Shown here piece after piece: positions 1 through 64,000 of a stretch of DNA of 64,000 nt; position 1 is the first letter of the stretch; every line of letters starts with the position of its first letter. Made by a program: the position numbers and the translations under genes. Location of the stretch: contig NC_134701.1 of NCBI RefSeq assembly GCF_043290135.1, forward strand, positions 7,842,001 through 7,906,000. Reading direction: 5' to 3'. Origin of the DNA: Rhipicephalus microplus (lineage: Eukaryota > Arthropoda > Arachnida > Ixodida > Ixodidae). The notes under the pieces are model-generated. The model worked only from the letters and a program-made list of their open reading frames with translations. It did no database searches and had not been told where the DNA came from.

Positions 1-88
1 GCTCTCCCGGTGGTGGTGCGGCGCTTTTTTTCTGTGGGCTGATAGCTTTGAAGATATGTTCTGATGGTGGTGAGAGTAGAGCAGGTCT

Positions 89-162
89 GTCTCCGTGGCG
101 CAATTGGCTAGCGTGATCGGCTGTTAACCGAAAAGTTTGAGGTTCGAGCCCACCCGGTGGTG
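89..162 (+). tRNA. tRNA-Asn(GTT)-like unit, type A
   Basis: This is the first complete tRNA-like unit, 74 nt including one extra D-loop base. The anticodon GTT lies at 123-125 in the loop CTGTTAA. It differs from the array standard at C25 (T, giving GCGTGATCGG) and in the variable region. The acceptor is GTCTCCG against CGGTGGT: pairs 5-7 are sound, 4:69 is T-T, and the outer two are G-U. No intron and no encoded CCA are seen. A T7 terminator starts 9 nt downstream. It is probably a pseudogene, although a covariance model may still score it as tRNA. Confidence 0.55.
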
Positions 163-235
163 GTGCGGCGCTTTTTTTCTTTGGTCTGATAGCTTTGAAG
201 CTATGTTCTGATGGTGGTGAGAGTAGAGCAGGACT

Positions 236-309
236 GTCTCCGTGGCGCAATTGGCTAGCGCGATCGGCTGTTAACCGAAAGGTTTGAGTTTCGAGCCCTC
301 CCGGGAGTG
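236..309 (+). tRNA. tRNA-Asn(GTT)-like unit, type B
   Basis: This unit shows the type B T-arm: stem GGAGT-like/CCTCC, where the conserved G53-C61 pair becomes T-C. The acceptor 3' side is CGGGAGT. The anticodon is GTT. The trailer GTGTGTTGC is followed by T6, which differs from the type A trailer GTGCGGCGC. Confidence 0.5.
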
Positions 310-381
310 GTGTGTTGCTTTTTTCTTTGCGCTTATAGCTTTGAAGATATGTTCTGATGGTGGTGAGAGTGAAGCACGACT

Positions 382-455
382 GTCTCTGTGGCGCATTTGG
401 CTAGCGCGATCGGCTGTTAACCGAAAGGTTGGAGGTTCGAGCCCACCCGGTGATG
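382..455 (+). tRNA. tRNA-Asn(GTT)-like unit, type A variant
   Basis: The unit has a GTCTCTG acceptor 5' strand, a GCGCATTTGG D-arm and anticodon GTT. The 3' end is CGGTGAT. The T-arm is GGAGG/CCACC with the usual A51-A63 mismatch. A T8 run follows the trailer. Confidence 0.5.
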
Positions 456-529
456 GTGTGGCGCTTTTTTTTCTTTGTGCTGATAGCTTTGAAGATATGT
501 TCTGATGGTGGAGAGAGTGGAGCAGGACT

Positions 530-603
530 GTCTCCGTGGCGCAATTGGCTAGCGCGATTGGCTGTTAACCGAAAGGTTGGAGGTTCGAGCCCACCCGGTG
601 GTG
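530..603 (+). tRNA. tRNA-Asn(GTT)-like unit, type A
   Basis: This is a near-standard type A unit. The anticodon stem strand is ATTGG rather than ATCGG, which makes a T-G wobble opposite the CCGAA strand. Anticodon GTT, intact A box TGGCGCAATTGG and B box GGTTCGAGCCC. A T7 terminator lies in the trailer. Confidence 0.55.
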
Positions 604-676
604 GTGCGGTGCTTTTTTTCTTTGGGCTGATAGCTTTGAAGGTATGTTCTGATGGTGGTGAGAGTGGAGCAGGACT

Positions 677-691
677 GTCTCCGTGGCGCAA
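677..691 (+). repeat. 5' target-site duplication of the LINE
   Basis: The 15 bases GTCTCCGTGGCGCAA are repeated exactly at 5545-5559. They are tRNA nucleotides 1-15. A simple replacement or deletion would not repeat them, so this is a true target duplication. One extra A makes the inner edge uncertain by a base. Confidence 0.85.
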
Positions 692-734
692 ATCATTCTG
701 CTTCCGGCAGTCGTGCTGAACGGATCGCAGGATC

Positions 735-1949
735 ATGAGCTCCAGCGGAGCGGCGACAGCGGCCAATCTTAGCCGCGGAAACAGGAACGGAGATAGCGAA
801 TACCAGTTTATTTTGCCGCAAATGCCAAAAGGACGACTTGTTATCAACACCGTGTTTTTACACGGTGATGTACGAGCGAGGCCATACAAGGTCGAAGATT
901 TCAGGGACGCATTGACGCCAACGGGCCTGCTGCCGGATGTGGTAAGCCTCGGTGCATACCAGGTTAGCCACTTGTGGGCGGTGACATTCAATGATGCCGC
1001 TCCCACAAAACGCCTGCTCGCCTTGAAGGAGCTGCAGGTGAAGGGGCGGCGCTGCGTCGTCGTCGACCCACAGGACCAGCAGGTGCGGCTACGAATTCAC
1101 TGGCTGCTTCACGGGGTGAGCGACGAAGAAGTACGGACGGCGCTGTCGGTTTTCGGCAAGGTCGTGGAGGTGAGCCGTGAGCGATGGCGTGTCCCGGGCA
1201 TGGCCGACAAGTGTTCGACCACGAGAACAGCTCTCCTGAAGCTGAAAAGCGGCGTCAGGGTCGAAGACCTTCCGCACCAGATCAGGATCGATGGAGAGCT
1301 GGCCTTGCTGGTTGTGCCTGGTCGGCCGATGCAATGCTTGCGCTGCCAAGGCAAAGGGCACGTCCGCCGAGAGTGCAAGGTTCCCCGTTGCTCGCGGTGC
1401 AAACGCTTCGGACACGTCGAGGCGGATTGCGTTCGAACGTACGCCAGTGCAATGGGGCCAGCGAAGAACGAGGCGATGGCTGATCACGTCATGGACGCGG
1501 CCGAGGCAGAGGACGCCGCCAAAGGGGTCGGAAGCCCAGTGGTCCCTGTGACTACTGGAGGGGCGGCGCAGGCAGACACACCCAAGTTTCCGGAGACTCG
1601 CCAGCTTTCGACTACACCGGCCAGCGCCCCGTCAGCGGCCGAGCCTGAGCGGGTCGAGACGGACGTGGTTCCAGTGGGGACAGCTGATACAACGGAGGGT
1701 CAGGGAGAGACGGCGGCGGACAGCGACGACGAGATGTGCGTGACCAGCGCCACGCTAAAGCGTCCACTCGACGACTCGGTAGAGCAGGACGGGGCGTCGT
1801 CCACCAGCAGCCAGGAGCCGCCTGCGAAGGCGCCGCAAGGGAGGCGGCGTAGTCTCAAACCTAAGCCGAAAGTCCCTACCGACCAGAGACTGGAGGACAA
1901 GGCAAAAGAAAACAGCGCTGGGAAGCAGGATGGTCCTGGAGGCGGCTAG
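735..1949 (+). CDS. LINE ORF1 protein with two CCHC zinc knuckles
   Basis: This is a 404-aa nucleic-acid-binding protein of the retrotransposon, expected to coat the element RNA and act in the ribonucleoprotein. Two adjacent zinc knuckles have C-x2-C-x4-H-x4-C spacing: C201, C204, H209, C214 and C219, C222, H227, C232. The region before them, about residues 35-190, is mixed alpha/beta-like and may be an RRM-type fold; this is an inference. After the knuckles the protein is low complexity, rich in A, E, T and P, and ends with a basic stretch and GPGGG. It lies 29 bp upstream of ORF2. The frame is open throughout, with a high GC third position unlike the AT-richer ORF2. The start is the first ATG of the element, 43 bp from its 5' edge, so an upstream start lost by truncation cannot be excluded. 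Confidence 0.82.
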   Translation: MSSSGAATAANLSRGNRNGDSEYQFILPQMPKGRLVINTVFLHGDVRARPYKVEDFRDALTPTGLLPDVVSLGAYQVSHLWAVTFNDAAPTKRLLALKELQVKGRRCVVVDPQDQQVRLRIHWLLHGVSDEEVRTALSVFGKVVEVSRERWRVPGMADKCSTTRTALLKLKSGVRVEDLPHQIRIDGELALLVVPGRPMQCLRCQGKGHVRRECKVPRCSRCKRFGHVEADCVRTYASAMGPAKNEAMADHVMDAAEAEDAAKGVGSPVVPVTTGGAAQADTPKFPETRQLSTTPASAPSAAEPERVETDVVPVGTADTTEGQGETAADSDDEMCVTSATLKRPLDDSVEQDGASSTSSQEPPAKAPQGRRRSLKPKPKVPTDQRLEDKAKENSAGKQDGPGGG

Positions 1950-1978
1950 CCGAGGGCTGGTCGTGAAGGGTAAGCGCC

Positions 1979-4900
1979 ATGCTCCGGGCCTACTCCTTTA
2001 GCGAACAAGTCACTATGGAATTAACTCCGCCATTCAGTATAGCTACGCTTAACGTCAGAGGGTTGGCGGCTAGGCGTAGGCAAAGTCAGCTCTATCGGTT
2101 GCTCACAGACCAAGACATAGACGTCCTAGCCGTCCAGGAAACTAAGGTAGACGGAGAGGAGGAGACCGGGAGCATGGTGCGCCGTTTCACTGACCGATAT
2201 TACGCGGTCGTAAGCCACTCGATAGGAACGTCCGCGGGTTGTGTTCTTTTTGTAAAAAAATTGCAAAGCCTTCTTGTGCAAAGTGTTTTTTCATGTCAGT
2301 CGGGCAGAATTGTTTATTGTGACTTTGTTTATGGTGCCACTGAATTCAGAGTTATATGCGTATACGCACCGAATAGTGTAGAAGAGCGTGCTCAGTTTTT
2401 TTCTAACCTGTTTCAGTGGACAAAGTGTAATAAGAGGGTGGTTTTGTTAGGTGATTTTAACTGTGTTTTAAGGGCTCGCGATAGAGTCAATAGCACTGGC
2501 GTTCGTGACAAAAGCAGTGACGTGCTAGGCAAATTAATAACCGAAAATGACTTGGAAGACGTGTATGAATGTGTGGCAGCAAATCGCGAAGTGATCTACA
2601 CGCGATTTCATGGCAATAGCCATGCACGTTTAGACCGCATATACCTATCCCTAGATGTATTGCCTATGTGTCACGATTTTTCGGTTGAGCCAGTGTCGTT
2701 TTCAGATCACTGTTTGGTTGTGTGTCGCATAGGCATGAAGAAACAGCGTAAGGTTTTCAACTGGGATTTATGGAAACTGAACGCATTGTTACTAAAAGAT
2801 GAACCATTTTTAGAAGCAGTGCACGAGACCATTAATGAAGTGCTTATGGAAAAAACGGAAACAGTAGCAGAGAAATGGGAGTGTTTAAAGCAGAAGGTGA
2901 AAATGAAAGCGCTTGACAGATCGAGCACGCTAAAATTCGAAGCGCAAATAAAAGAAAGAAGTCTTAAGAAAACACTGCAGCAGCTGATAGCCCTAGAAAG
3001 TCGGGAGCCTGGGACTTGCAAAGACGAGGTGCGCAGTGTCAAGGAAAAATTAGAACTGCATGACAGAGAGCGTTATCGAGGCGCCTGGGTTCGCGCGCGC
3101 GCAAATGATCTTGCCGCGGGTGAGACGCCCACAAAAAGGGCGCTTGGTCTCGAAAAAGCGCAAGGACGCCGAAACCACATCGATAAGGTCTATTGCAACG
3201 GGACTCTCGCGAGCGACAAGGAAAGCATCGAACGGGCCTTTGTTGCGTATTATCAGTCACTTTTTGCAATTCGAAAAGCGAATGTACATGGTTTTAAAGA
3301 AGAGTTTCTCAAGCGCTTGCCGCGGCTTAGTGACGACACAAAAAAGCTTTTAGAAGGCAGAATAACGGAAGGTGAAGTGGAACGCGCGATTGGTCATCTG
3401 AACCCCGGAAAGTCACCGGGACCCGATGGCCTAACCGCAGCATGGTATAAGACGTTTAGAATAGAACTGTCCCCGGGGTTAGCTGAGCTGTTCAATGAGG
3501 CGTACGAACGGAAAACTCTGCCGCCCTCCTTCAGCAAAGCGCATACGATATTAATTCCTAAAACGGACGAAGAGGAAAAACTTAAACTGGTGACATCGTA
3601 TAGGCCCATATCGCTGACCAATGTCGACTACAAGATTTTTATGAAGGTTCTGGCAGCGCGACTTCAAGGTGTCATTAAAGAAATTGTTGGAGAGCACCAA
3701 ACTTGTGGAATCAAAGGCAGAACCATTAGCTCAAACATTCACAAGATGCGGTGTGTGCTAGAGTGTTGTGACGAAGATTCACTTGGCGTTGCTGTGCTCC
3801 AGATAGACCTGGAGAAAGCTTTTGATTGTGTTGCGCATGATATTTTGTTTGTCATCTTAGATCATATTAATGTCGGTTCCATCATCAAGGAGGGAGTGGC
3901 CTTGGCGTACCAGAACTGCACAACACGTTTAATTGTTAACAAGTCTTTGGGGGCCCCCATTCACGTAATGCGTTCTGTGCGTCAGGGCTGCCCCCTCAGT
4001 CCACTTTTGTTTTGTATTTACATCGAAGCGATGTGCTTAGCGATAAATGAAAATGAAAAAATTCGTGGCTTCAGCTTGGCGGCAGTGGAAGTTAAGCTGC
4101 TGGCATATGCAGACGACATTGCGGTGTGTTGTACGAACAAAGAAAGTGTAGAGGAAACGATAAGTGTTGTGAAACATTTTTGTAGCGTCACAGGAAGCCG
4201 CGTAAACTGGGCGAAATCTCTTGGGCTTTGGCACGGAAGGTGGCCTTCAAAGCCGGACCTTTTTGCGAATGTGCACTGGACGGAAACACCGACAAGGTAC
4301 CTCGGTGTTCCCCTGGAATGTTATAACGGCAGCGAGGAGTATTGGTCGCGTCAAACAAAAGAGACGAAGGAAAAAGCAGACAGGTGGAAAGGCATGAACC
4401 TGTCTGTTTTCGCTAGGGCTACTGTGTGCAACATGTTTTTTATCGCTAAACTGTGGTATGTGATGCAGGTGTTACATTGTTCAAGGATCAACGTGCAAAG
4501 GCTGCACAGAGTGTTCGCAGTTTTTATATGGGGCTCGAAATGGGAAAGGTGCAGACGGACCAACTTGTTCAGGCGCGTGAAGGACGGAGGTCTTGGTTTG
4601 GCGCACCTATTTGTGAGACAAGTAGTAAATAGATTTTTGTTTTTCCGTGACGTCAGGGATCCGTTTTTACGTACGGTATGCCAGCTCAGGTTAGGCAGTG
4701 CCTTACCAGATTTTGTTGTTACTACGGATAGCCGGCCCGTGACGTTGCGTGGGTATCTCAAGGAAGTGGTAGACAGTGTACGTTTTTTATCTGTACGCTT
4801 TTCGATAGATTATCTAGCAAGTGTTAGAAGAAAAGAATTGTACAGAGATGTATGTGCTATGGTTTTGCCAGTACCATTGTACAGGGCCATATACAGTGGA

Positions 4901-5410
4901 AGACCGGGACAAAACGTACTGAAGCGGGTGAGAAACATGCAGGTACCTACAGGGGTGAAAACTTTTTTCTTCAAGTTACACACAGGAACACTATCAGTAA
5001 AGACTTTCACAGAGGAACGGGGTTTTTTTACACTATGGGGGTCACACTGCTTGATATGTAAGAAACCAGAAACAATAGACCATGTTTTTTTGCATTGTTG
5101 GGAAGGGGTACATTTTTGGGACATATTACAGAGGACAATAAAGAAGGATTTTCCACTAGACCCACACGGAATAAGGTACCTCGCAGTAACAAATGATGAT
5201 GGGGTCCCATTCGATGTAGTGATGTTGACCGGTCTCCACTGTATATGGCGTGCACGAATGGCCGGATACCATTTCGACCCGGACGCAAAACCAGCAGTAA
5301 TTTATTTCAGGCAAAGCATGTCTGCATTCATTGAGTGTAGCAAAATAGAGGATATCGAGCCAGAATGGTTGTCAAGGGTTGAACCCCTGGCAAACCTTAA
5401 GTATTTTTAA
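1979..5410 (+). CDS. LINE ORF2: endonuclease, reverse transcriptase and zinc finger
   Basis: This 1143-aa polyprotein performs target-primed reverse transcription. The N-terminal ~235 residues form an exonuclease-endonuclease-phosphatase domain, with the motifs IATLNVRG, QETK, LLGDFN, LDRIY and SFSDH in the usual order. The reverse transcriptase follows, with GKSPGPDGL near residue 476, SYRPISLTNVDYK, the D-containing LQIDLEKAFD, RQGCPLSPLLF, and the catalytic YADD at 710-713. Near the C terminus, about residue 1024, is a C-x2-C-x7-H-x4-C finger (CLICK...DHVFLHC), as in zf-RVT. There is no internal stop or frameshift, so the copy is potentially active. An alternative start is the in-frame ATG at 2015, just before the endonuclease. 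SYRPISLTNVDYK and the zf-RVT favour Tx1/L1 over CR1 or RTE. Confidence 0.88.
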   Translation: MLRAYSFSEQVTMELTPPFSIATLNVRGLAARRRQSQLYRLLTDQDIDVLAVQETKVDGEEETGSMVRRFTDRYYAVVSHSIGTSAGCVLFVKKLQSLLVQSVFSCQSGRIVYCDFVYGATEFRVICVYAPNSVEERAQFFSNLFQWTKCNKRVVLLGDFNCVLRARDRVNSTGVRDKSSDVLGKLITENDLEDVYECVAANREVIYTRFHGNSHARLDRIYLSLDVLPMCHDFSVEPVSFSDHCLVVCRIGMKKQRKVFNWDLWKLNALLLKDEPFLEAVHETINEVLMEKTETVAEKWECLKQKVKMKALDRSSTLKFEAQIKERSLKKTLQQLIALESREPGTCKDEVRSVKEKLELHDRERYRGAWVRARANDLAAGETPTKRALGLEKAQGRRNHIDKVYCNGTLASDKESIERAFVAYYQSLFAIRKANVHGFKEEFLKRLPRLSDDTKKLLEGRITEGEVERAIGHLNPGKSPGPDGLTAAWYKTFRIELSPGLAELFNEAYERKTLPPSFSKAHTILIPKTDEEEKLKLVTSYRPISLTNVDYKIFMKVLAARLQGVIKEIVGEHQTCGIKGRTISSNIHKMRCVLECCDEDSLGVAVLQIDLEKAFDCVAHDILFVILDHINVGSIIKEGVALAYQNCTTRLIVNKSLGAPIHVMRSVRQGCPLSPLLFCIYIEAMCLAINENEKIRGFSLAAVEVKLLAYADDIAVCCTNKESVEETISVVKHFCSVTGSRVNWAKSLGLWHGRWPSKPDLFANVHWTETPTRYLGVPLECYNGSEEYWSRQTKETKEKADRWKGMNLSVFARATVCNMFFIAKLWYVMQVLHCSRINVQRLHRVFAVFIWGSKWERCRRTNLFRRVKDGGLGLAHLFVRQVVNRFLFFRDVRDPFLRTVCQLRLGSALPDFVVTTDSRPVTLRGYLKEVVDSVRFLSVRFSIDYLASVRRKELYRDVCAMVLPVPLYRAIYSGRPGQNVLKRVRNMQVPTGVKTFFFKLHTGTLSVKTFTEERGFFTLWGSHCLICKKPETIDHVFLHCWEGVHFWDILQRTIKKDFPLDPHGIRYLAVTNDDGVPFDVVMLTGLHCIWRARMAGYHFDPDAKPAVIYFRQSMSAFIECSKIEDIEPEWLSRVEPLANLKYF

Positions 5411-6723
5411 GAGGACAACATCAGTACAAATGGGACTGATGGCAATGCTTGTTTTTTTTTTTTTTTTCTTTGTATTGTAATATATGTGTGTGCAATGATT
5501 GCCCTGTACAATGTCCATGCCAGGCAATAAATAAAAAAAAAAAAGTCTCCGTGGCGCAATTGGCTTGCGCGATCTGCTGTTAACCGAAAGGTTGGAGGTT
5601 CGAGCGCACCCGGTGGTGGTGCGGCGCTTTTTTTTCTTTGCGCTAATAGCTTTGAAGATATGTTCTGATGGTGGTGAGAGTAGTGCAGGACTGTCTCCGT
5701 GGCGCAATTGGCTAGCGCGATCGGCTGTTAACCGAAAGGTTGGAGTTTCGAGCCCTCCCGGGAGTGGTGTGTTGCTTTTTTCTTTGCGCTGATAGCTTTG
5801 AAGATACCTTCTGATGGTGGTGAGAGTGGTGCACGACTGTCTCCGTGGCGCAGTTCGCTAGCGTGATCGGCTGTTACACGAAAGGTTGGAGGTTCGAGCC
5901 ATCCCGGTGGTGGTGTGGCGCTTTTTTTTTCTTTGGGCTGATAGCTTTGAAGATATATTCTGATGGTGGTGAGAGTGGAGCAGGACTGTCTCCGTGGCGC
6001 AATTAGCTTGCGCGATCAGCTGTTAACCGAAAGGTTCGAGGTTCGAGCCCACCCGGTGGTGGAGCGGTGCTTTTTTTCTTTGCGCTGATAGCTTTGAAGA
6101 TATGATCTGATGGTGGTGAGAGTGGAGCAAGACTGTCCCCGTGGCGCAATGGGCTAGCGCGATCGCCTGTTAACCGAAAGGTTGGAGGTTCGAGCCCACC
6201 CGGTGGTGGTGCGGTGCTTTTTTTTCTTCGGGCTGATAGCTTTGAAGATATGTTCTGATCGTGGTGAGAGTGGAGCAGGAATGTCTCCGTGGCGCAATTG
6301 GCTTGCGGGATCGGCTGTTAACCGAAAGGTTTGAGGTTCGTACCCACCCGATGGTGGTGCGGCGCTTTTTTTTCTTTGCGCTGATAGCTTTGAAGATATG
6401 TTCTGATGGTGGTGAGAGTGGAGCAAGACTGTCCCCGTGGCCCAATGGGCAAGCCCGATCGGCTGTTAACCGAAAGGTTGGAGTTTCAAGCCCACCCGGT
6501 GGTGGTGCGGCGCTTTTTTTTCTTTGCGCTGATAGTTTGAAGATATGTTCTGATGGTGGTGAGAGTGGAGCAAGAATGTCTCCGTGGCGCAATGGGCAAG
6601 CGCGATCGGCTGTTAACCGAAAGGTTGGAATTTCGAGCCCTTCCGGGAGTGGTGTGTTGCTTTTTTCTTTGCGGTAATAGCTTTGAAGATATGTTCTAAT
6701 GGTGGTGAGAGTGCAGCAGGACT

Positions 6724-6797
6724 GTCTTCGTGGCGCAATTGGCTAGCGCGATCGGCTGTCAACCGAAAGGTTGTAGGTTCGAGCCCACCCGGTGGTG
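6724..6797 (+). pseudogene. tRNA-like unit with anticodon GTC
   Basis: The anticodon loop reads CTGTCAA, so the anticodon at 6758-6760 is GTC (an Asp reading) in an otherwise Asn-type body. The acceptor 5' strand is GTCTTCG and the T-arm is GTAGG/CCACC, with reduced pairing. It is probably a decayed copy and not a tRNA-Asp gene. Confidence 0.5.
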
Positions 6798-9369
6798 GTG
6801 CGGCGCTTTTTTTTTCTTTGGGGTGATAGCTCTGAAGAAATGTTCTGACGGTGGTGAGAGTGGAGCACGACTGTCTCCGTGGGGCAATAGGCTAGCGCGA
6901 TCGGCTGTTGACCGAAAGGTTGGAGGTTCGAGCCCACCCGGTGGTGGTGCGGCGCTTTTTTTCTGTGGGCTGATAGCATTGAAGATATGTTCTGATGGTG
7001 GTGAGAGTAGAGCAGGACTGTTTCCGTGGCGCAATTGGCTAGCGTGATCGGCTGTTAACCGAAAAGTTGGAGGTTCGAGCCCACCCGGTGGTGGTGCGGC
7101 GCTTTTTTTTCTTTGGGCTGATAGCTTTGAAGATATGTTCTGATGGTGGTGAGAGTAGAGCAGGACTGTCTCCGTGGCGCAATTGGCTAGCGCGATCGCC
7201 TGTTATCCGAGAGGTTGGAGTTTAGAGCCATCCCGGGAGTGGTGTGTTGCTTTTTTCTTTGCGCTGATAGCTTTGAAGGTATGTTCTTATGGTGGTGAGA
7301 GTGGAGCACGACTGTCTCCGTGGCGCAGTTGGCTAGCGCGATCGGCTGTTAACCGAAATGTTGGAGGTTCGAGCCCACCCGGTGATGGTGTGGCGCTTTT
7401 TTTCTTTGTGCTGATAGCTTTGAAGATATGTTCTGATGGTGGTGAGAGTGGAGCAGGACTGTCTCTGTGGCGCAATTCGCTAGCGCGATTGGGTGTTAAC
7501 CAAAAGTTTGGAGGTTCGAGCCCACCCAGTTGGTGGTGCGGTGCTTTTTTTCTTTGGGCTGATAGCTTTGAAGATATGTTTTGATTGTGGTGAGAGTGGA
7601 GCACGGCTGTCTCAGTGGCGCAGTTGGCTAGCGCGATCGGCTGTTAACCGAAAGGTTGGAGGTTCGAGCCCACCCGGTGATGGTGTGGCGCTTTTTTTGA
7701 GCTGATAGCTTTGAAGATATGTTCTGATGGTGGTGAGAGTGGAGCAGGACTGTCTCCGTGGCGCAATTGGCTAGCGTGATCGGCTGTTAACCGAAAAGTT
7801 GGAGGTTCGAGCCCACCCGGTGGTGGTGCGGCGCTTTTTTTTCTTTGGGCTGATAGCTTTGAAGATATGTTCTGATGGTGGTGAGAGTAGAGCAGGACTG
7901 TCTCCGTGGCGCAATTGGCTAGCGCGATCGGCTGTTAACCGAAAGGTTGGAGTTTCGAGCCCTCCCGGGAGTGGTGTGTTGCTTTTTTCTTTGCGCTGAT
8001 AGCTTTGAAGTTATGTTCTGATGGTGGTGAGAGTGGAGCACGACTTTCTCCGTGGCGCAGTTGGCTAGCGCGATCGGCTGTTAACCGAAAGGTTCGACGT
8101 TCGAGCCCACCCGGTGATGGTGTGGCGCTTTTTTTTCTTTGGGCTGATAGCTTTGAAGATATGTTCTGATGGTGGTGAGAGTGGAGCAGGACTGTCTCCG
8201 TGGCACAATTGGCTAGCGCGATTGGCTGTTAACCGAAAGGTTGGAGGTTCGAGCCCACCCGGTGGTGGTGCGGTGCTTTTTTTCTTTGGGCTGATAGCTT
8301 TGAAGATATGTTCTGATGGTGGTGAGAGTGGAGCAAGACAGTCTCCGTGGCGCAATGGGCTAGCGCGATCGGCTGTTAACCGAAAGGTTGGAATTTCGAG
8401 CCCTCCCGGGAGTGGTAAGTTGCTCTTTTCTTTGCGGTAATAGCTTTGAATATATGTTCTGATGGTGGTGAAAGTGCAGCTGGACTGTCTTCGTGGCGCA
8501 AATGGCTAGCGCGATCGGCTGTTAACCGAAAGGTTGGAGGTTCGAGCCCACCCGGTGGTGGTGCGGTGCTTTTTTTTCTTTGGGGTGATAGCTCTGAAGA
8601 AATGTTCTGACGGTGGTGAGAGTGGAGCACGACTGTCTCCGTGGGGCAATAGGCTAGCGCGATCGGCTGTTAACCGAAAGGTTGGAGGTTCGTGCCCACC
8701 TGGTGGTGGTGCGGCGCTTTTTTTTTCTTTGCGCTGATAGCTATGAAGAAATGTTCTGACGGTGGTGAGAGTGGAGCAGGACTGTCTCCGTGGCGCAATT
8801 GGCTAGCGCGATCGGCTGTTAACCGAAAGGTTGGAATTTCGAGCCCTCCCGGGAGTGCTAAGTTGCTTTTTTTCTGTGGGCTGATAGCTTTGAAGATCTG
8901 TTCTGATGGTGGTGAGAGTAGAGCAGGTCTGTCTCCGTGGCGCAATTGGCTAGCGTGATCGGCTGTTAACCGAAAAGTTGGAGGTTCGAGCCCACCCGGT
9001 GGTGGTGCGGCGCTTTTTTTTCTTTGGGCTGATAGCTTTGAAGATATGTTCTGATGGTGGTGAGAGTGCAGCAGGACTGTCCCCGTGGCGCATTGGGCTA
9101 GCGCGATCGGCTGTTAACCGAAAGGTTGGAGTTTCGAGCCCTCCCGGGAGTGGTGTGTTGCTTTTTTCTTTGCACTGATAGCTTTGAAGATATGTTCTGA
9201 TGGTGGAGAGAGTGGAACAGGACTGTCTCCGTGGCGCAATTGGCTAGCGCGATCGGCTGTTAACCGAAAGGTTGGAGGTTCGAGCCCACCTGGTGGTGGT
9301 GCGGCGCTTTTTTTTTGTGCTAATAGCTTTGAAGATATGTCCTGATGGTGGTGAGAGTGGAGCAAGACT

Positions 9370-9443
9370 GTCCCCGTGGCGCAATGGGCTAGCGCGATCG
9401 GCTGTCAACCGAAAGGTTGGAGTTTCGAGCCCTCCCGGGAGTG
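9370..9443 (+). pseudogene. Type B tRNA-like unit with anticodon GTC
   Basis: The acceptor 5' strand is GTCCCCG and the 3' strand CGGGAGT; the change to C4 gives a C4-G69 pair. The anticodon at 9404-9406 is GTC. The same variant recurs in many type B units (for example near 11285, 12767, 16927, 40116 and 43014), so it has spread with the array. G53 is replaced by T, which weakens both the T-stem and the B box. Confidence 0.55.
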
Positions 9444-28991: not shown

Positions 28992-29041
28992 CGCTCGTCG
29001 GTTGGTTTGTACGGCGCGTCGACGTCCAATGTCGCGGTGAA

Positions 29042-53220: not shown

Positions 53221-54629
53221 ATGGTGGTGAGAGTGGAGCAGGACTGTCTCCGTGGCGCAATGGGCTAGCGCGATCGGCTGTTAACCGAAAGGTTGGAGTT
53301 TCGAGCCCTCCCGGGAGTGGTGTGTTGCTTTTTTCTTTGCACTGATAGCTTTTAAGATATGTTCTGATGGTGGTGAGAGTGGAGCAGGACTGTCTCCGTG
53401 GCGCAATTGGCTAGCGCGATCGGCTGTTAACCGAAAGGTTGGATGTTCGAGCCCACCCGGTGGTGGTGCGGCGCTTTTTTTCTTTGCGCTAATAGCTTTG
53501 AAGATATGTCCTGATGGTGTTGAGAGTGGAGCAAGACTGTCTCCGTGGCGCAATGGGCTAGCGCGATCGGCTGTTAACCGAAAGGTTGGAGTTTCGAGCC
53601 CTCCCGGGAGTTGTGTGTTGCTTTTTTCTTTGTGGTAATAGCTCTGAAGATATGTTCGGATGGTGGTGAGAGTGGAGCAGGACTGTCTCCATGGCGCAAT
53701 TGGCTAGCGCGATCGGCTGTTAACCGAAAGGTTGGAGTTTCGAGCCCACCCGGTGGTGAGGCGGTGCTTTTTTTTCTTTGGGCTGATAGCTTTGAAGATA
53801 TATTCTGATGGTGGTGAGAGTGGAGCAGGACTGTCTCCGTGGCGCAATTGGCTTGCGCGATCGGCTGTTAACCGAAAGGTTGGAGTTTCGAGCCCTCCCG
53901 GGAGTGGTGTGTTGCTTTTTTCTTTGCACTGATAGCTTTGAAGATATGTTCTGATGGTAGTGAGAGTGGAGCAAGACTGTCTCCGTGGCGCAATTGGCTA
54001 GCGCGATCGGCTGTTAACCGTAAGGTTGGAGGTTCGAGCCCACCCGGTGGTGGTGCGGCGCTTTTTTTCTTTGCGCTAATAGCTTTGAAGATATGTCCTG
54101 ATGGTGTTGAGAGTGGAGCAAGACTGTCTCCGTGGCGCAATGGGCCAGCGCGATCGGCTGTTAACCGAAAAGTTGGAGGTTCGAGCTCTCCCAGTGGTGC
54201 TGCGCCGCTTTTTTTTCTGTGGGCTGATAGCTTTGAAGGTATGTTCTGATGGTGGGGAGAGTAGAGCAGGACTGTCTCCGTGGCGCAATTGGCTAGCGTG
54301 ATCGGCTGTTAACCGAAAAGTTGGAGGTTCGAGCCCACCCGGTGGTGGTGCGGCGCTTTTTTTTCTTTGGGCTGATAGCTTTGAAGATATGTTCTGATGG
54401 TGGTGAGAGTAGAGCAAGACTGTCTCCGTGGCGCAAAGGGCGGGCGCGATCGGCTGTTAACCGAAAGGTTGGAGTTTCGAGCCCTCCCGGGAGTTGTGTG
54501 TTGCTTTTTTCTTTGTGGTAATAGCTTTGAAGATATGTTCGGATGGTGGTGAGAGTGGAGCAGGACTGTCTCCATGGCGCAATTGGCTAGCGCGATCGGC
54601 TGTTAACCGAAAGGTTGGAGTTTCGAGCC

Positions 54630-56315: not shown

Positions 56316-57573
56316 TGAGAGTGGAGCAGGACTGTTTCCGTGGCGCAATTGGCTAGCGCGATCGGCTGTTAACCGAAAAGTTGGAGGTTCGAGCTCTCCC
56401 AGTGGTGCTGCGCCGCTTTTTTTTCTGTGGGCTGATAGCTTTGAAGGTATGTTCTGATGGTGGGGAGAGTAGAGCAGGACTGTCTCCGTGGCGCAATTGG
56501 CTAGCGTGATCGGCTGTTAACCGAAAAGTTGGAGGTTCGAGCCCACCCGGTGGTGGTGCGGCGCTTTTTTTTCTTTGGGCTGATAGCTTTGAAGATATGT
56601 TCTGATGGTGGTGAGAGTAGAGCAAGACTGTCTCCGTGGCGCAAAGGGCGGGCGCGATCGGCTGTTAATGGAAAGGTTGGAGTTTCGAGCCCTCCCGGGA
56701 GTGGTGTGTTGCTTTTTTCTTTGTGGTAATAGCTTTGAAGATATGTTCTGATGGTGGTGATAGTGGAGCAGGACTGTCTCCATGGCGCAATTGGCTATCG
56801 CGATCGGCTGTTAACCGAAAAGTTGGAGTTTCGAGCCCACCCGGTGGTGGTGCGGCGCTTTTTTTTCTTTGGGCTGATAGCTCTGAAGAAATGTTCTGAC
56901 GGTGGTGAGAGTGGAGCAGGAATGTCTCCGTGGCGCAATTGGCTAGCGCGATCGGCGGTTAACCGAAAGGTTGGAGGTTCCAGCCCACCCTGTGGTGGTG
57001 CGGCGCTTTTTTTCTTTGGGCTGATAGCTTTGAAGATATGTTCTGATGGTGGTGAGAAGGGAGCAAGACTGTCTGCGTGGCGCAATGGGCTAGCGCGATC
57101 GGCTGTTAACCGAAAGGTTGGAGTTTCGAGCCCTCCCGGAAGTGGTGTGTTGTTTTTTTCTTTGCGCTGATAGCTTCGAAGATATGTTCTGATGGTGGTG
57201 AGAGCGGAGCAAGACTGTCTCCGTGGCGCAAAGGGCTAGCGTGATCGGCTGTTAACTGAAAGGTTGGAGGTTCGAGCCCACACGGTGGTGGTGCGGCGCT
57301 TTTTTTCTTTGGGGTGATAGCTCTGAAGAAATGTTCTGACGGTGGTGAGAGTGGAGCACGACTGTCTCCGTGGGGCAATAGGCTAGCGCGATCGGCTGTT
57401 AACCGAAAGGTTGGAGGTTCGAGCCCACACGGTGGTGGTGCGGCGCTTTTTTTTCTTTGGGGTGATAGCTCTGAAGAAATGTTCTGACGGTGGTGAGAGT
57501 GGAGCACGACTGTCTCCGTGGGGCAATAGGCTAGCGCGATCGCCTGTTAACCGAAAGGTTGGAGGTTCGAGCC

Positions 57574-59259
57574 CACCCGGTGGTGGTGCGGCGCTTTTTT
57601 TTCTTTGGGCTGATAGCTTTGAAGATATATTCTGATGGTGGTGAGAGTGGAGCAGGACTGTCTCCGTGGCGCAATTGGCTTGCGCGATCGGCTGTTAACC
57701 GAAAGGTTGGAGTTTCGAGCCCTCCCGGGAGTGGTGTGTTGCTTTTTTCTTTGCACTGATAGCTTTGAAGATATGTTCTGATGGTGGTGAGAGTGGAGCA
57801 AGACTGTCTCCGTGGCGCAATTGGCTAGCGCGATCGGCTGTTAACCGAAAGGTTGGAGGTTCGAGCCCACCCGGTGGTGGTGCGGCGCTTTTTTTCTTTG
57901 CGCTAATAGCTTTGAAGATATGTCCTGATGGTGTTGAGAGTGGAGCAAGGCTGTCTCCGTGGCGCAATGGGCCAGCGCGATCGGCTGTTAACCGAAAGGT
58001 TGGAGTTTCGAGCCCTTCCGGGAGTGGTGTGTTGCTTTTTTCTTTGTGGTAATAGCTTTGAAGATATGTTCGGATGGTGGTGAGAGTGGAGCAGTACTGT
58101 CTCCATGGCGCAATTGGCTAGCGCGATCGGCTGTTAACCGAAATGTTGGAGTTTCGAGCCCACCCGGTGGTGGTGCGGCGCTTTTTTTTCTTTGGGCTGA
58201 TAGCTCTGAAGAAATGTTCTGACGGTGGTGAGAGTGGAGCAGGACTGTCTCCGTGGCGCAATTGGCTAGCGCGATCGGCGGTTAACTGAAAGGTTGGAGG
58301 TTCCAGCCCACCCTGTGGTGGTGCGGCGCTTTGTTTTCTTTGGGCTGATAGCTCTGAAGAAATGTTCTGACGGTGGTGTGAGTGGAGCAGGACTGTCCCC
58401 GTGGCGCCATTGGCTAGCGCGATCGGCTGTTAACCAAAAAGTTGGAGGTTAGAGCCCTCGCGGGTGGGGTGTGTTGCTTTTTTTTGCGCTGATAGCTTTG
58501 AAGATATGTTCTGATGGTGGTGAGCGTGGAGCACGATTGTCTCCGTGGCGCAATTGGCTAGCGCGATCGGCCGTTAACCGAAAGGTTGGAGGTTCGAGCC
58601 CACCCGGTGGTTGTGCGGCGCTTTTTTTTCTTTGGGCTGATAGCTTGAAAGATATGTTCTAATGGTGGTGAGAGTGGAGCAGGACTGTCTCCGTGGCGCA
58701 TTTGGCCAGCGCGATCGGCTGTTAACCAAAAAGTTGGAGGTTCGAGCCCTCCCGGCAGTGGTGTGTTGCTTTTTTCTTTGCGCTGATAGCTTTGAAGATA
58801 TGTTCTGATGGTGGTAAGAGTGGAGCACGACTGTTTCCGTGGCGCAATTGGCTAGAGCGATCAGCTGTTAACCGAAAGGTTGGAGGTTCGAGCCCACCCG
58901 GTGGTGGTGCGGCGCTTTTTTTTTTCTTTAGGCTGATAGCTTTGAAGATATGTTCTGATGGTGGTGAGAAGGGAGCAAGACTGTCTCCGTGGCGCAAAGG
59001 GCTAGCGTGATCGGCTGTTAACCGAAAGGTTGGAGGTTCGAGCCCACCCGGTGGTGGTGCGGCGCTTTTTTTTCTTTGGGGTGATAGCTCTGAAGAAATG
59101 TTCTGACGGTGGTGAGAGTGGAGCACGACTGTCTCCGTGGGGCAATAGGCTAGCGCGATCGGCTGTTAACCGAAAGGTTGGAGGTTCGAGCCCACCCGGT
59201 GGTGGTGCGGCGCTTTTTTTTCTTTGGGCTGATAGCTCTGAAGATATGTTCTGACGGTG
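57574..59259 (+). repeat. Higher-order repeat G, copy 2
   Basis: Partner of 54630-56315. It gains one T in a terminator run near 58,915, so the offset becomes 2945 afterwards. Confidence 0.8.
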
Positions 59260-61252
59260 GTGAGAGTGGAGCAAGACTGTCTGCGTGGCGCAATGGGCTA
59301 GCGCGATCGGCTGTTAACCGAAAGGTTGGAGTTTCGAGCCCTCCCGGAAGTGGTGTGTTGTTTTTTTCTTTGCGCTGATAGCTTCGAAGATATGTTCTGA
59401 TGGTGGTGAGAAGGGAGCAAGACTGTCTGCGTGGCGCAATGGGCTAGCGCGATCGGCTGTTAACCGAAAGGTTGGAGTTTCGAGCCCTCCCGGAAGTGGT
59501 GTGTTGTTTTTTTCTTTGCGCTGATAGCTTCGAAGATATGTTCTGATGGTGGTGAGAGCGGAGCAAGACTGTCTCCGTGGCGCAAAGGGCTAGCGTGATC
59601 GGCTGTTAACTGAAAGGTTGGAGGTTCGAGCCCACACGGTGGTGGTGCGGCGCTTTTTTTCTTTGGGGTGATTGCTCTGAAGAAATGTTCTGACGGTGGT
59701 GAGAGTGGAGCACGACTGTCTCCGTGGGGCAATAGGCTAGCGCGATCGGCTGTTAACCGAAAGGTTGGAGGTTCGAGCCCACACGGTGGTGGTGCGGCGC
59801 TTTTTTTTCTTTGGGGTGATAGCTCTGAAGAAATGTTCTGACGGTGGTGAGAGTGGAGCACGACTGTCTCCGTGGGGCAATAGGCTAGCGCGATCGCCTG
59901 TTAACCGAAAGGTTGGAGGTTCGAGCCCACCCGGTGGTGGTGCGGCGCTTTTTTTTCTTTGGGCTGATAGCTCTGAAGAAATGTTCTGACTGTGGTGAGA
60001 GTGGACCAGGACTGTTTCCGTGGCGCAATTGGCTAGCGCGATCGGCTGTTAACCGAAAGGTTGGAGGTTCGAACCCACCCGGTGGTGGTGCGGCTCTTTT
60101 TTTTCTTTGCGCTGATAGCTTTGAAGATATGTTCTGATGGTGGTGAGAGTGGAGCAAGACTGTCTCCGTGGCGCTATGGGCAAGCGCGATCGGCTGTTAA
60201 CCGAAAGGTTGGAGTTTCGAGCCCACCCGGTGGTGGTGCGGCGCTTTTTTTTCTTTGCGCTGATAGTTTGAAGATATGTTCTGATGGTGGTGAGAGTGGA
60301 GCAAGACTGTCTCCGTGGCGCAATGGGCAAGCGCGATCGGCTGTTAACCGAAAGGTTGGAATTTTGAGCCCTTCCGGGAGTGGTGTGTTGCTTTTTTCTT
60401 TGCGGTAATTGCTTTGAAGATATGTTCTGATGGTGGTGAGAGTGCAGCAGGACTGTCTTCGTGGTGCAATTGGCTAGCGCGATCGGCTGTTAACCGAAAG
60501 GTTGGAGGTTCGAGCCCACCCGGTGGTGGTGCGGCGCTTTTTTTTCTTTGGGGTGATAGCTCTGAAGAAATGTTCTGACGGTGGTGAGTGTGGAGCACGA
60601 CTGTCTCCGTGGGGCAATAGGCTAGCGCGATCGGCTGTTAACCGAAAAGTTGGAGGTTCGAGCCCACCCGGTGGTGGTGCGGCGCTTTTTTTTCTTTGGG
60701 CTGATAGCTTTGAAGATATGTTCTGATGGTGGTGAGAGTAGAGCAGGACTGTCTCCGTGGCGCAATTGGCTTGCGCGATCGGCTGTTAACCGAACGGTTG
60801 GAGGTTCGAGCCCAGCCGGTGGTGGTGCGGCGCTTTTTTTCATTGCGCTGATAGCTTTGAAGATATGTTCTGATGGTGGTGAGAGTGGAGCAAGACTGTC
60901 CCCGTGGCGCAATGGGCTAGCGCGATCGGCTGTTAACCGAAAGGTTGGAGTTTCGAGCCCTCCCGGGAGTGGTGTGTTGCTTTTTTCTTTGCACTGATAG
61001 CTTTGAAGATATGTTCTGATGGGGGTGAGAGCGGAGCAGGACTGTCTCCGTGGCGCAATTGGCTAGCGCGATCGGCTGTTAACCGAAAGGTTGGATGTTC
61101 GAGCCCACCCGGTGGTGGTGCGGCGCTTTTTTTCTTTGCGCTAATAGCTTTGAAGATATGTCCTGATGGTGTTGAGAGTGGAGCAAGACTGTCTCCGTGG
61201 CGCAATGGGCTAGCGCGATCGGCTGTTAACCGAAAGGTTGGAGTTTCGAGCC
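59045..61252 (+). repeat. Higher-order repeat H, copy 1 (2208 bp)
   Basis: 15 units of 147.2 bp, directly followed by a second copy. Markers are CTGCGTGGCGC units, GATAGCTTCGAAG spacers, GGCTCTTTTTTTTC, GCGCTATGGGC and CCGAACGGTTGG. Confidence 0.88.
60898..60971 (+). tRNA. Reference type B tRNA-Asn(GTT)-like unit
   Basis: The acceptor is GTCCCCG/CGGGAGT: pairs 4-7 are Watson-Crick, C3-A70 is mismatched, and the outer two are G-U. The D-loop is AATGGGCTA. The anticodon is GTT. The T-arm is GGAGT/CCTCC, with a T53-C61 mismatch that breaks a near-universal pair and changes the B box start from GGTTCG to GTTTCG. The trailer GTGTGTTGC is followed by T6. The body is Asn-like, but the B box is weaker than in type A. 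Confidence 0.5.
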
Positions 61253-63455
61253 CACCCGGTGGTGGTGCGGCGCTTTTTTTTCTTTGGGGTGATAGCTCTG
61301 AAGAAATGTTCTGACGGTGGTGAGAGTGGAGCACGACTGTCTCCGTGGGGCAATAGGCTAGCGCGATCGGCTGTTAACCGAAAGGTTGGAGGTTCGAGCC
61401 CACCCGGTGGTGGTGCGGCGCTTTTTTTTCTTTGGGCTGATAGCTCTGAAGATATGTTCTGACGGTGGTGAGAGTGGAGCAAGACTGTCTGCGTGGCGCA
61501 ATGGGCTAGCGCGATCGGCTGTTAACCGAAAGGTTGGAGTTTCGAGCCCTCCCGGAAGTGGTGTGTTGTTTTTTTCTTTGCGCTGATAGCTTCGAAGATA
61601 TGTTCTGATGGTGGTGAGAAGGGAGCAAGACTGTCTGCGTGGCGCAATGGGCTAGCGCGATCGGCTGTTAACCGAAAGGTTGGAGTTTCGAGCCCTCCCG
61701 GAAGTGGTGTGTTGTTTTTTTCTTTGCGCTGATAGCTTCGAAGATATGTTCTGATGGTGGTGAGAGCGGAGCAAGACTGTCTCCGTGGCGCAAAGGGCTA
61801 GCGTGATCGGCTGTTAACTGAAAGGTTGGAGGTTCGAGCCCACACGGTGGTGGTGCGGCGCTTTTTTTCTTTGGGGTGATAGCTCTGAAGAAATGTTCTG
61901 ACGGTGGTGAGAGTGGAGCACGACTGTCTCCGTGGGGCAATAGGCTAGCGCGATCGGCTGTTAACCGAAAGGTTGGAGGTTCGAGCCCACACGGTGGTGG
62001 TGCGGCGCTTTTTTTTCTTTGGGGTGATAGCTCTGAAGAAATGTTCTGACGGTGGTGAGAGTGGAGCACGACTGTCTCCGTGGGGCAATAGGCTAGCGCG
62101 ATCGCCTGTTAACCGAAAGGTTGGAGGTTCGAGCCCACCCGGTGGTGGTGCGGCGCTTTTTTTTCTTTGGGCTGATAGCTCTGAAGAAATGTTCTGACTG
62201 TGGTGAGAGTGGACCAGGACTGTTTCCGTGGCGCAATTGGCTAGCGCGATCGGCTGTTAACCGAAAGGTTGGAGGTTCGAACCCACCCGGTGGTGGTGCG
62301 GCTCTTTTTTTTCTTTGCGCTGATAGCTTTGAAGATATGTTCTGATGGTGGTGAGAGTGGAGCAAGACTGTCTCCGTGGCGCTATGGGCAAGCGCGATCG
62401 GCTGTTAACCGAAAGGTTGGAGTTTCGAGCCCACCCGGTGGTGGTGCGGCGCTTTTTTTTCTTTGCGCTGATAGTTTGAAGATATGTTCTGATGGTGGTG
62501 AGAGTGGAGCAAGACTGTCTCCGTGGCGCAATGGGCAAGCGCGATCGGCTGTTAACCGAAAGGTTGGAATTTTGAGCCCTTCCGGGAGTGGTGTGTTGCT
62601 TTTTTCTTTGCGGTAATTGCTTTGAAGATATGTTCTGATGGTGGTGAGAGTGCAGCAGGACTGTCTTCGTGGTGCAATTGGCTAGCGCGATCGGCTGTTA
62701 ACCGAAAGGTTGGAGGTTCGAGCCCACCCGGTGGTGGTGCGGCGCTTTTTTTTCTTTGGGGTGATAGCTCTGAAGAAATGTTCTGACGGTGGTGAGTGTG
62801 GAGCACGACTGTCTCCGTGGGGCAATAGGCTAGCGCGATCGGCTGTTAACCGAAAAGTTGGAGGTTCGAGCCCACCCGGTGGTGGTGCGGCGCTTTTTTT
62901 TCTTTGGGCTGATAGCTTTGAAGATATGTTCTGATGGTGGTGAGAGTAGAGCAGGACTGTCTCCGTGGCGCAATTGGCTTGCGCGATCGGCTGTTAACCG
63001 AACGGTTGGAGGTTCGAGCCCAGCCGGTGGTGGTGCGGCGCTTTTTTTCATTGCGCTGATAGCTTTGAAGATATGTTCTGATGGTGGTGAGAGTGGAGCA
63101 AGACTGTCCCCGTGGCGCAATGGGCTAGCGCGATCGGCTGTTAACCGAAAGGTTGGAGTTTCGAGCCCTCCCGGGAGTGGTGTGTTGCTTTTTTCTTTGC
63201 ACTGATAGCTTTGAAGATATGTTCTGATGGGGGTGAGAGCGGAGCAGGACTGTCTCCGTGGCGCAATTGGCTAGCGCGATCGGCTGTTAACCGAAAGGTT
63301 GGATGTTCGAGCCCACCCGGTGGTGGTGCGGCGCTTTTTTTCTTTGCGCTAATAGCTTTGAAGATATGTCCTGATGGTGTTGAGAGTGGAGCAAGACTGT
63401 CTCCGTGGCGCAATGGGCTAGCGCGATCGGCTGTTAACCGAAAGGTTGGAGTTTC
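61253..63455 (+). repeat. Higher-order repeat H, copy 2 (2208 bp)
   Basis: Tandem partner of 59045-61252, nearly identical; for example ATTGCTCTG at ~59671 reads ATAGCTCTG at ~61879. It diverges near 63,455, where a type B T-arm replaces a hybrid one. Confidence 0.88.
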
Positions 63456-64000
63456 GAGCCCTCCCGGGAGTGGTGTGTTGCTTTTTTCTTTGTGGTAATA
63501 GCTTTGAAGATATGTTCGGATGGTGGTGAGAGTGGAGCAGGACTGTCTCCATGGCGCAATTGGCTAGCGCGATCGGCTGTTAACCGAAATGTTGGAGTTT
63601 CGAGCCCACGCGGTGGTGGTGCGGTGCTTTTTTTTCTTTGGGCTGATAGCTTTGAAGATATATTCTGATGGTGGTGAGAGTGGAGCAGGACTGTCTCCGT
63701 GGCGCAATTGGCTTGCGCGATCGGCTGTTAACCGAAAGGTTGGAGTTTCGAGCCCTCCCGGGAGTGGTGTGTTGCTTTTTTCTTTGCACTGATAGCTTTG
63801 AAGATATGTTCTGATGGTGGTGAGAGTAGAGCAGGACTGTCTCCGTGGCGCAATTGGCTAGCGCGATCGGCTGTTAACCGAAAGGTTGGAGGTTCGAGCC
63901 CACCCGGTGGTGGTGCGGCGCTTTTTTTCTTTGCGCTAATAGCTTTGAAGATATGTCCTGATGGTGTTGAGAGGGGAGCAAGACTGTCTCCGTGGCGCAA

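What the first reader, a model, noticed from the sequence alone, without database searches (positions are those of the whole stretch)
1..64000. A satellite made of tRNA-Asn-like genes with Pol III signals in every unit
Seen: roughly 355 same-strand ~147-bp units, each holding a tRNA-Asn(GTT)-like body, an A box (TGGCGCAATTGG or close), a B box (GGTTCGAGCCC in type A) and a T6-T9 run 9 nt after the tRNA end. Known: these are the internal promoter and terminator of Pol III. Inference: a tRNA gene became a satellite while keeping transcription signals at high density. Tandem tRNA clusters are known (Xenopus tDNA repeats, Entamoeba arrays), but a single-tRNA monomer of nucleosome size over more than 60 kb is unusual.
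Basis: partly seen in the sequence, partly recalled or inferred. Interest (0 to 1): 0.85.

Follow-up and report, generated by a model that had tools for sequence, protein, structure and literature searches.

The report
Tick satellite from a tRNA gene
A tandem cluster of asparagine-tRNA genes in a tick appears to have grown into hundreds of thousands of mostly decayed copies, and a jumping gene that inserts at the start of tRNA genes of many kinds also lands at the start of these copies.

Summary
The window holds 363 same-strand ~147-bp units, with 297 Rfam tRNA matches. It lies in an interrupted array region of about 5.35 Mb. The tick genome holds an estimated 0.59-0.67 million units, 87-98 Mb, about 3%.

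"Pol III signals in every unit" is wrong. Of 350 full units, 145 have consensus A box, strict B box and T-run; 112 share a B box whose first G is T. In the window the tRNA part is no better conserved than the spacer. On contig C45 the same repeat encodes near-canonical tRNA-Asn, up to 68.5 bits against a window maximum of 50.8. Best reading: a tandem tRNA-Asn gene cluster that escaped into a satellite and decays nearly neutrally.

New lead: the LINE at 692-5544. All 83 exact genomic copies of its 3' end abut a tRNA-type sequence (2 of them judged by eye only): 53 at other tRNAs, 30 at satellite units, mostly at tRNA position 1 or 2. This suggests, but does not show, an animal LINE guided by the Pol III machinery. 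Tandem Gly, Ser and Met tRNA arrays with 137-158-bp spacing also occur.

The parts
1..691 (+). Satellite units before the LINE; 677-691 is the 5' copy of the 15-bp target duplication (unit positions 1-15)
692..5544 (+). L1-group LINE inserted at the first base of a tRNA-Asn unit; ORF1 frame 720-1949, ORF2 frame 1967-5410, A-rich end, second copy of the target duplication at 5545-5559
5545..13020 (+). Satellite units
13021..15266 (+). Remnant of an LTR retrotransposon (named from motifs by eye) in the spacer, 4-bp ATAT duplication read by eye; open frame 13090-14868
15267..20628 (+). Satellite units
20629..22253 (-). Antisense fragment of another LINE (reverse-transcriptase frame, named by eye) inserted in the anticodon arm of a unit
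22254..28642 (+). Satellite units
28643..29300 (.). First of four copies of one ~660-bp insertion, placed in the T-run; the others at 32874-33531, 40777-41440 and 43672-44336
29301..64000 (+). Satellite units, interrupted by the three further ~660-bp copies named above
45594..45667 (+). Best-scoring tRNA-Asn-like body of the window (50.8 bits)

Best explanation
A tandem tRNA-Asn(GTT) gene cluster with a ~147-bp repeat (tRNA, short trailer, T-run, ~55-bp spacer) was amplified by unequal exchange and segmental duplication into a megabase satellite of about 3% of a tick genome. Most units are decaying pseudo-tRNA genes without detectable selection on the tRNA part; a block on contig C45 keeps near-canonical tRNA-Asn genes. 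Some units can probably still bind Pol III factors, because an L1-group LINE that inserts at the first bases of tRNA genes of many isotypes also inserts at the first bases of satellite units. Shown: the anatomy, the high copy number (the total is an estimate), the gradient from near-canonical to decayed units, and the insertion positions. Inferred: the direction (cluster to satellite), the amplification mechanism, Pol III binding, and guidance of the LINE by Pol III factors.
For: Same unit, trailer, T-run and spacer in C45 with tRNA scores up to 68.5 bits and in the window with at most 50.8; an intermediate family at L014. Decay: 145 of 350 window units and 151 of 454 sampled units elsewhere keep A + strict B (the window figure also asks for T4). 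No excess conservation of the tRNA in the window (p 0.39) or over 641 unique units (p 0.18), whereas the same test finds it in C45 stretch L187 (p 0.0009) and a tRNA-Gly array (p 0.027). Segmental duplication: exact repeats up to 1,580 bp at offsets of 2,208, 3,386 and 4,231 bp. LINE positions.
Against: Second C45 stretch L186 is only borderline (p 0.053), and the small Ser and Met sets show no significant excess (p 0.11 and 0.29), so the constraint test has limited power; those p values are one-sided and uncorrected. Part of C45 is decayed too (L188, best 49.8 bits). Preference of the LINE for units with a B box is seen with the relaxed motif (13 of 15 against 416 of 794, p 0.0067) but not with the strict one (9 of 15 against 391 of 794, p 0.29). 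No relative outside this genome was found, so the order of events rests on one genome. No expression data.
Confidence: 0.78

Rival explanations
1. The satellite is a working high-density Pol III locus: many units bind TFIIIC/TFIIIB or are transcribed, and this has a chromosomal role (heterochromatin, centromere, insulation).
For: T-run in 349 of 350 units and A + strict B + T in 145 of 350; the LINE uses satellite units at the tRNA start (30 of 83 exact copies) and hints at a B-box preference. Arrays on C3, C6 and C9 lie near contig ends.
Against: No conservation of the tRNA part over the spacer; 112 of 350 window units share a changed B box and in L025 only 4 of 19 units keep a relaxed B box. 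Only 30 exact LINE copies for an estimated 0.59-0.67 million units. Arrays on C4 and C8 are tens of Mb from the contig end.
Confidence: 0.14
2. The unit derives from a tRNA-Asn-headed SINE that became tandem, not directly from a tRNA gene cluster.
For: Ticks carry tRNA-related SINEs (Ruka, described in PMC3160391, passages seen). SINE-derived satellites exist (recalled).
Against: Of 8 solitary A-box loci examined on C1 (38 listed there), 1 is a satellite fragment and 7 have no satellite match, so no dispersed family was seen. Tandem arrays of other tRNAs with no SINE needed occur in the same genome. C45 units carry tRNA-Asn of up to 68.5 bits with a T-run shortly after the tRNA.
Confidence: 0.05
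3. The long arrays are inflated by misassembly.
For: Long repeats are hard to assemble; 1,202 contigs and N runs at some contig starts. Nearly identical stretches recur, such as L040/L041, L042/L045 and L043/L046.
Against: 261 of 350 window units are unique; arrays on several contigs differ in consensus, and most LINE insertions have their own position.
Confidence: 0.03

Closest known systems
Tandem tRNA gene arrays: Xenopus tDNA repeats, Entamoeba tRNA arrays
   Same: tRNA genes in head-to-tail repeats
   Different: One tRNA in a nucleosome-sized unit, an estimated 0.59-0.67 million units, most with decayed signals
Satellites made from Pol III genes, such as 5S-rDNA-derived PcP190 (recalled; one search found no paper)
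   Same: A Pol III gene turned into satellite DNA
   Different: tRNA-Asn instead of 5S, with a near-canonical block of the same repeat in the same genome
Tick satellites: ISR-2 of Ixodes scapularis (passages of PMC4748124); RMR-1 of Rhipicephalus microplus, ~149 bp (recalled)
   Same: Abundant tick tandem repeats; ISR-2 lies in near-terminal heterochromatin
   Different: ISR-2 is 95-99 bp. RMR-1 has a similar length and could be the same repeat; its sequence could not be compared here
tRNA gene expansion in ticks (passages of PMC13105059)
   Same: Many more tRNA genes than other Acari and insects, 20-30 fold
   Different: The paper filters tRNA-derived repeats and reports an even rise over isotypes; its passages do not mention tandem or satellite (0 occurrences)
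Dictyostelid TRE5-A and NLTR-A (review passages of PMC5911963; passages of PMC5006619; abstract of PMC5391098)
   Same: L1-type elements at tRNA genes of many kinds; NLTR-A sits 2-6 bp upstream of the tRNA; TRE5-A insertions were read as marks of Pol III complexes
   Different: Amoebae with compact genomes; TRE5 inserts 40-54 bp upstream. The tick LINE inserts mostly at tRNA position 1 or 2, duplicating the first tRNA bases in the window copy
Single-tRNA-specific elements in animals: planarian LIN15_SM and LIN25_SM (passages of PMC4640811); fish Dada DNA transposons (passages of PMC8869645)
   Same: Insert in animal tRNA genes
   Different: Named for one tRNA type each (Dada not always strict); LIN are NeSL-related, Dada are DNA transposons. 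The tick LINE is L1-like with a PF03372 endonuclease and hits many tRNA types

Membership tests
Satellite DNA | Long head-to-tail arrays of one short unit at very high copy number | tested here: met
   363 units in 64 kb; 299,407 exact A boxes genome-wide
Satellite DNA | Heterochromatic location (centromeric or subtelomeric) | not testable with these tools
   Several arrays lie near contig ends, others tens of Mb away; no FISH or chromatin data
Functional tandem tRNA gene cluster | Units encode a foldable tRNA with intact A and B boxes | tested here: not met
   Window: 145 of 350 full units with A + strict B + T. C45 stretches come close to it: up to 68.5 bits
Functional tandem tRNA gene cluster | tRNA part more conserved than spacer | tested here: not met
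   Window p 0.39; met in C45 L187 (p 0.0009), borderline in L186 (p 0.053)
Functional tandem tRNA gene cluster | Transcription and charging of the tRNA | not testable with these tools
   No RNA data
tRNA-derived SINE | Dispersed single copies with a common tail | tested here: inconclusive
   None among 8 of 38 listed C1 loci, 1 of the 8 a satellite fragment; other contigs not searched for single copies
L1-group non-LTR retrotransposon (the LINE) | APE-type endonuclease plus reverse transcriptase related to LINE-1 ORF2 | tested here: met
   PF03372 and PF00078; best PDB match LINE-1 ORF2, E 2.9e-77
L1-group non-LTR retrotransposon (the LINE) | Place in the Tx1 or the L1 clade by a tree | not tested
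   No tree was built
tRNA-gene-targeting retrotransposon (TRE5/NLTR-A type) | Insertions at a fixed position relative to tRNA genes of many isotypes | tested here: met
   83 of 83 exact 3' ends abut a tRNA-type sequence, 2 judged by eye only, 1 in reverse orientation; 39 of 51 measured flanks start at position 1 or 2
tRNA-gene-targeting retrotransposon (TRE5/NLTR-A type) | Guidance by Pol III transcription factors | not testable with these tools
   Inferred from diverse targets; B-box preference only suggestive

The most novel reading that the evidence does not exclude
In a tick, an L1-group LINE finds tRNA genes of many types through the bound Pol III machinery, the first such element known in an animal, and its insertions are a natural footprint showing that Pol III factors still assemble on part of a ~90-Mb tRNA-Asn satellite, which serves the LINE as a safe landing place and may act as a Pol III sink.
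Probability: 0.35. Interest if true: 0.88.

Novelty: new variant of a known kind. Interest (0 to 1): 0.72.

Why it matters
It catches a likely gene-to-satellite transition with stages side by side: near-canonical tandem tRNA-Asn genes, an intermediate family and very large decayed arrays, all with the same unit. It suggests that tRNA expansion in ticks can happen through nucleosome-sized tandem arrays of several tRNA types, and that tRNA counts in tick genomes depend on how such arrays are filtered. The LINE offers an animal system for tRNA-gene targeting, and its old insertions may serve as a record of Pol III occupancy.

Tried and rejected
Signals in every unit: rejected by counts. Regular two-unit higher-order repeat: period 294 suggested it, but the A/B order is irregular; local segmental duplications fit better. 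Canonical T-stem variant as marker of real tRNA-Asn genes: 477 matches, but all 12 loci fetched were satellite. Antisense reading frame as tracer of the satellite in other ticks: 88 weak hits; none of the 208 proteins then held (and together) carried the spacer peptides searched for. Literature on tRNA-derived satellites: two searches, no papers. Tick repeats and tick genomes; the listings and the passages seen did not describe this unit. LINE literature; no animal L1-group element at tRNA genes of many types was seen in the listings or in the passages and the abstract; papers not held are not covered. RMR-1 is recalled and could not be compared. My automatic sorting of LINE targets was faulty (one non-satellite tRNA, L149, included; several satellite targets missed; the poly(A) of L014 misread). 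The counts used are the nhmmer list and a hand-made list of 15 independent main-type events (L015/L016/L183 counted once, L171/L178/L179 counted once; older-family and C45 events left out); the background of 794 units leaves out L014 and includes a few of the target units. Genome-wide count of canonical tRNA-Asn genes: not completed (search busy).
Full report
What was checked. The window is C2:7,842,001-7,906,000 of an unnamed 3.26-Gb genome in 1,202 contigs. It holds 363 unit matches, all on the + strand, mostly 144-148 bp, and 297 Rfam tRNA matches at or above the gathering score, best 50.8 bits. ARAGORN reads 36 tRNAs in the first 12 kb, 33 Asn(GTT) and 3 Asp(GTC). The anticodon is GTT in 322 of 350 full-length units.

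The host. The best matches to the LINE's reverse transcriptase are unnamed; the closest named ones are tick proteins (Ixodes scapularis, Ornithodoros turicata, Ixodes persulcatus, Rhipicephalus microplus), followed by weaker hits to a lizard and a frog. Large contigs C1-C11 (ten of 110-303 Mb and one of 513 Mb) and TTAGG telomere repeats fit a hard tick. No tool names the species; 'metastriate tick with ten autosomes plus X' is my inference from recalled karyotypes.

Extent. The exact A box occurs 299,407 times genome-wide against 130 for the reversed pattern. It is present in 157 of 350 full window units and in 229 of 454 units sampled elsewhere, which gives 0.59-0.67 million units or 87-98 Mb, 2.7-3.0% of the assembly. 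The samples elsewhere were not random: some were found through the LINE or a T-stem variant. On C2 the first unit match is near 5.1096 Mb, next to degenerate TTAGG repeats. Satellite in + orientation was seen at 5.5, 6.0, 7.0, 7.4, 7.7, 7.76, 7.92, 8.0, 8.5, 9.0, 9.31, 9.4, 9.49, 9.6 and 9.8 Mb and in - orientation at 10.2 and 10.46 Mb; there was none at 7.78 and 10.0 Mb, at 10.6 Mb or at the six places sampled beyond it up to 25 Mb. Satellite was also seen on C3 (289, 290.9, 292.1, 293.3 of 293.3 Mb), C4 (175-180 and 231 of 243), C6 (1.8, 2.0, 2.5 of 205), C8 (125.2, 126 of 154), C9 (136 of 137), C12, C13, C14, C16, C19, C29, C45 and C100. Single 1-kb samples about 2 Mb from both ends of C1, C5, C7, C10 and C11 showed none, which does not exclude arrays elsewhere on them. 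On C1 38 exact A boxes are listed; of the 8 examined, 1 is a satellite fragment and 7 have no satellite match; three others at 119.6 Mb lie 146-148 bp apart and were not fetched.

Signals. Of 350 full window units, 267 have a consensus A box, 186 a strict B box (GGTTCGANNCC), 194 a relaxed one (GWTCRANNC), 349 a T-run of at least four, and 145 have A + strict B + T; the box consensuses are recalled. Two unit types explain much of this. Type A (238 of 350) mostly keeps the B box but has an A-A mismatch in the T stem (by eye from the consensus). Type B (112 of 350) restores that pair but changes the first B-box G to T, and none of the 112 passes even the relaxed test. In sampled stretches elsewhere 151 of 454 units have A + strict B. 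Stretches vary: in L025 4 of 19 units keep a relaxed B box; L025 and L039 have GGTACGA as majority form, and it is common in L024.

Constraint. Singleton variant types per site are 0.507 in the tRNA part and 0.537 in the spacer. Over 641 unique units from 28 stretches (some near-duplicates), rare-variant occurrences are 4.75 against 5.39 per site, p 0.18. An alignment test gives no significant difference in 120 random unique window units (0.943 against 0.926, one-sided p 0.39). The same test finds a better conserved tRNA part in one C45 stretch (L187, p 0.0009), borderline in the other (L186, p 0.053), and in a tRNA-Gly array (12 units, p 0.027), but not in the small Ser (4 units, p 0.11) and Met (3 units, p 0.29) sets. 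So the test can detect constraint, but samples are small and p values uncorrected. In the first comparison, the decayed C45 stretch L188 has a spacer better conserved than the tRNA (0.978 against 0.931).

Origin. C45 (3.26 Mb) carries the same repeat at 2.77, 2.90, 3.05, 3.15 and 3.18 Mb and none at 1.0, 2.0, 2.3, 2.6, 2.7 and 3.23 Mb. Many units at 2.77 and 3.15 Mb have paired acceptor, D, anticodon and T stems (by eye); scores reach 67.0 and 68.5 bits, and units at 2.90 Mb reach 49.8. Their T-run and spacer align with the satellite unit. L014 on C19 is an intermediate family: its consensus T stem is paired and 9 of 10 units keep a strict B box, but only 2 of 10 a consensus A box. I read this as a tandem gene cluster that became a satellite; the reverse order would need near-canonical tRNAs to arise again, for instance by gene conversion, and is not excluded.

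How the array grows. The A/B order is irregular. Mean identity is flat with distance (0.89-0.90), with small rises at 15 and 23 units. Exact repeats of 1,580, 1,329 and 1,027 bp occur at offsets of 2,208, 3,386 and 4,231 bp, and four copies of one ~660-bp insertion sit in similar surroundings. Segmental duplication of blocks of about 15-29 units fits.

The LINE. The element at 692-5544 has two long open frames, endonuclease, reverse transcriptase and zf-RVT domains in the second (no Pfam match in the first), and LINE-1 ORF2 as closest solved relative. It sits at unit position 1 with a 15-bp target duplication read directly from the sequence. Eleven genomic junctions match its A-rich end followed by GTCTCCGTGGCGCA, none for the reversed pattern. 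Its exact 23-base 3' end occurs 83 times. I looked at the 3' flank of all 83: 9 are among those 11, 20 were read, and 54. Thirty are satellite units (9 + 2 + 19; satellite called by nhmmer for the latter 21). Fifty-three are other tRNA-type sequences: 44 pass Rfam tRNA at E 0.01 (18, 26), 7 resemble Rfam-positive flanks (L130, L131, L136, L141, L146, L157, L159; L136 only in part), and 2 were recognised by eye only (L132, L139). L141 is in reverse orientation. ARAGORN calls a tRNA in 11 of the first 20 flanks: Gly, Thr, Arg, Leu, Asn, Cys, Ile, Ala and Ser. Several Thr-like flanks resemble each other and may be tRNA-derived SINE heads or copies of one array; this was not resolved, so the 83 are not 83 independent events. 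Of 51 flanks with a whole-length tRNA match, 39 begin at tRNA position 1 or 2, and the range is 12 bases upstream to position 3 (runs of A blur this by a few bases); flanks with a partial match begin further inside the tRNA. Of 10 stretches fetched for the 5' junction of other satellite copies, 7 show the unit start followed by the LINE start, one (L070) begins 4 bases further in, one (L077) is 5'-truncated, and one (L074) shows only satellite.

What the LINE says about the satellite. The other insertions in the window lie in the spacer, the anticodon arm and the T-run, not at the tRNA start. Among 15 hand-sorted independent insertions into main-type units, 13 have a relaxed B box against 416 of 794 background units (Fisher p 0.0067); with the strict box it is 9 of 15 against 391 of 794 (p 0.29). 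The window's own target unit fails both. A preference for units with a usable B box is thus suggested, not shown. Precedent: the abstract of PMC5391098 reads TRE5-A insertions at A/B-box loci of Dictyostelium rDNA as Pol III complex sites, and passages of PMC5911963 list TRE5 with ORF1-TFIIIB contact and NLTR-A at 2-6 bp upstream of tRNA genes. With 30 exact copies in some 0.6 million units, most units are probably rarely bound.

Other tRNA arrays. The LINE led to clusters of other tRNAs: Gly at 141-146-bp spacing (13 genes in 2 kb, C2:92.15 Mb), Ser mostly at 155-158 bp or twice that (C11:433.76 Mb), Met at 137 bp (C5:127.03 Mb; ARAGORN also labels some Ile or Thr) and Ala at 905 bp (C11:402.8 Mb). 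Tandem tRNA genes are thus not confined to Asn here. This agrees in kind with the 20-30-fold tRNA increase reported for ticks (passages of PMC13105059), though that paper filtered repeats.

Verdict. A real, very large satellite made from a tRNA-Asn gene. 'Pol III signals in every unit' is wrong; function is unproven and probably absent in most units. The C45 block and the LINE make the case more interesting than the array alone. A satellite from a Pol III gene is not new in principle (recalled); the scale, the staged decay and the tRNA-start LINE are, as far as the searches can tell; hence 'new variant of a known kind'.

Noticed in passing
window 692-5544; L109-L185: An L1-group LINE whose 83 exact 3' ends in the genome all abut a tRNA-type sequence, of many isotypes (2 judged by eye only)
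   Followed up: yes
L205 (C2:92.15 Mb), L204 (C11:433.76 Mb), L203 (C5:127.03 Mb), L202 (C11:402.8 Mb): Tandem arrays of other tRNA genes: Gly at 141-146 bp, Ser at 155-158 bp or twice that, Met at 137 bp, Ala at 905 bp
   Followed up: partly
L186, L187 (C45:2.77 and 3.15 Mb): Near-canonical tandem tRNA-Asn units with the satellite's own spacer, up to 68.5 bits: candidate living cluster
   Followed up: partly
window 28643-29300, 32874-33531, 40777-41440, 43672-44336: Four copies of one ~660-bp insertion in T-runs, apparently multiplied together with the surrounding units; its kind is unknown
   Followed up: no
L206 (C2:5,108,700-5,109,800): Degenerate TTAGG telomere-like repeats just outside the left edge of the C2 array, 5.1 Mb from the contig start
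   Followed up: no
L171, L178, L179 (C44, C71, C90); L015, L016, L183 (C29): LINE insertions with identical satellite flanks on different contigs or places, as if blocks of satellite were copied after insertion, or assembled more than once
   Followed up: no
window, minus strand, e.g. 50913-51497: Units of 147 bp (49 codons) give open antisense frames over several units; likely to be mis-annotated as proteins
   Followed up: partly
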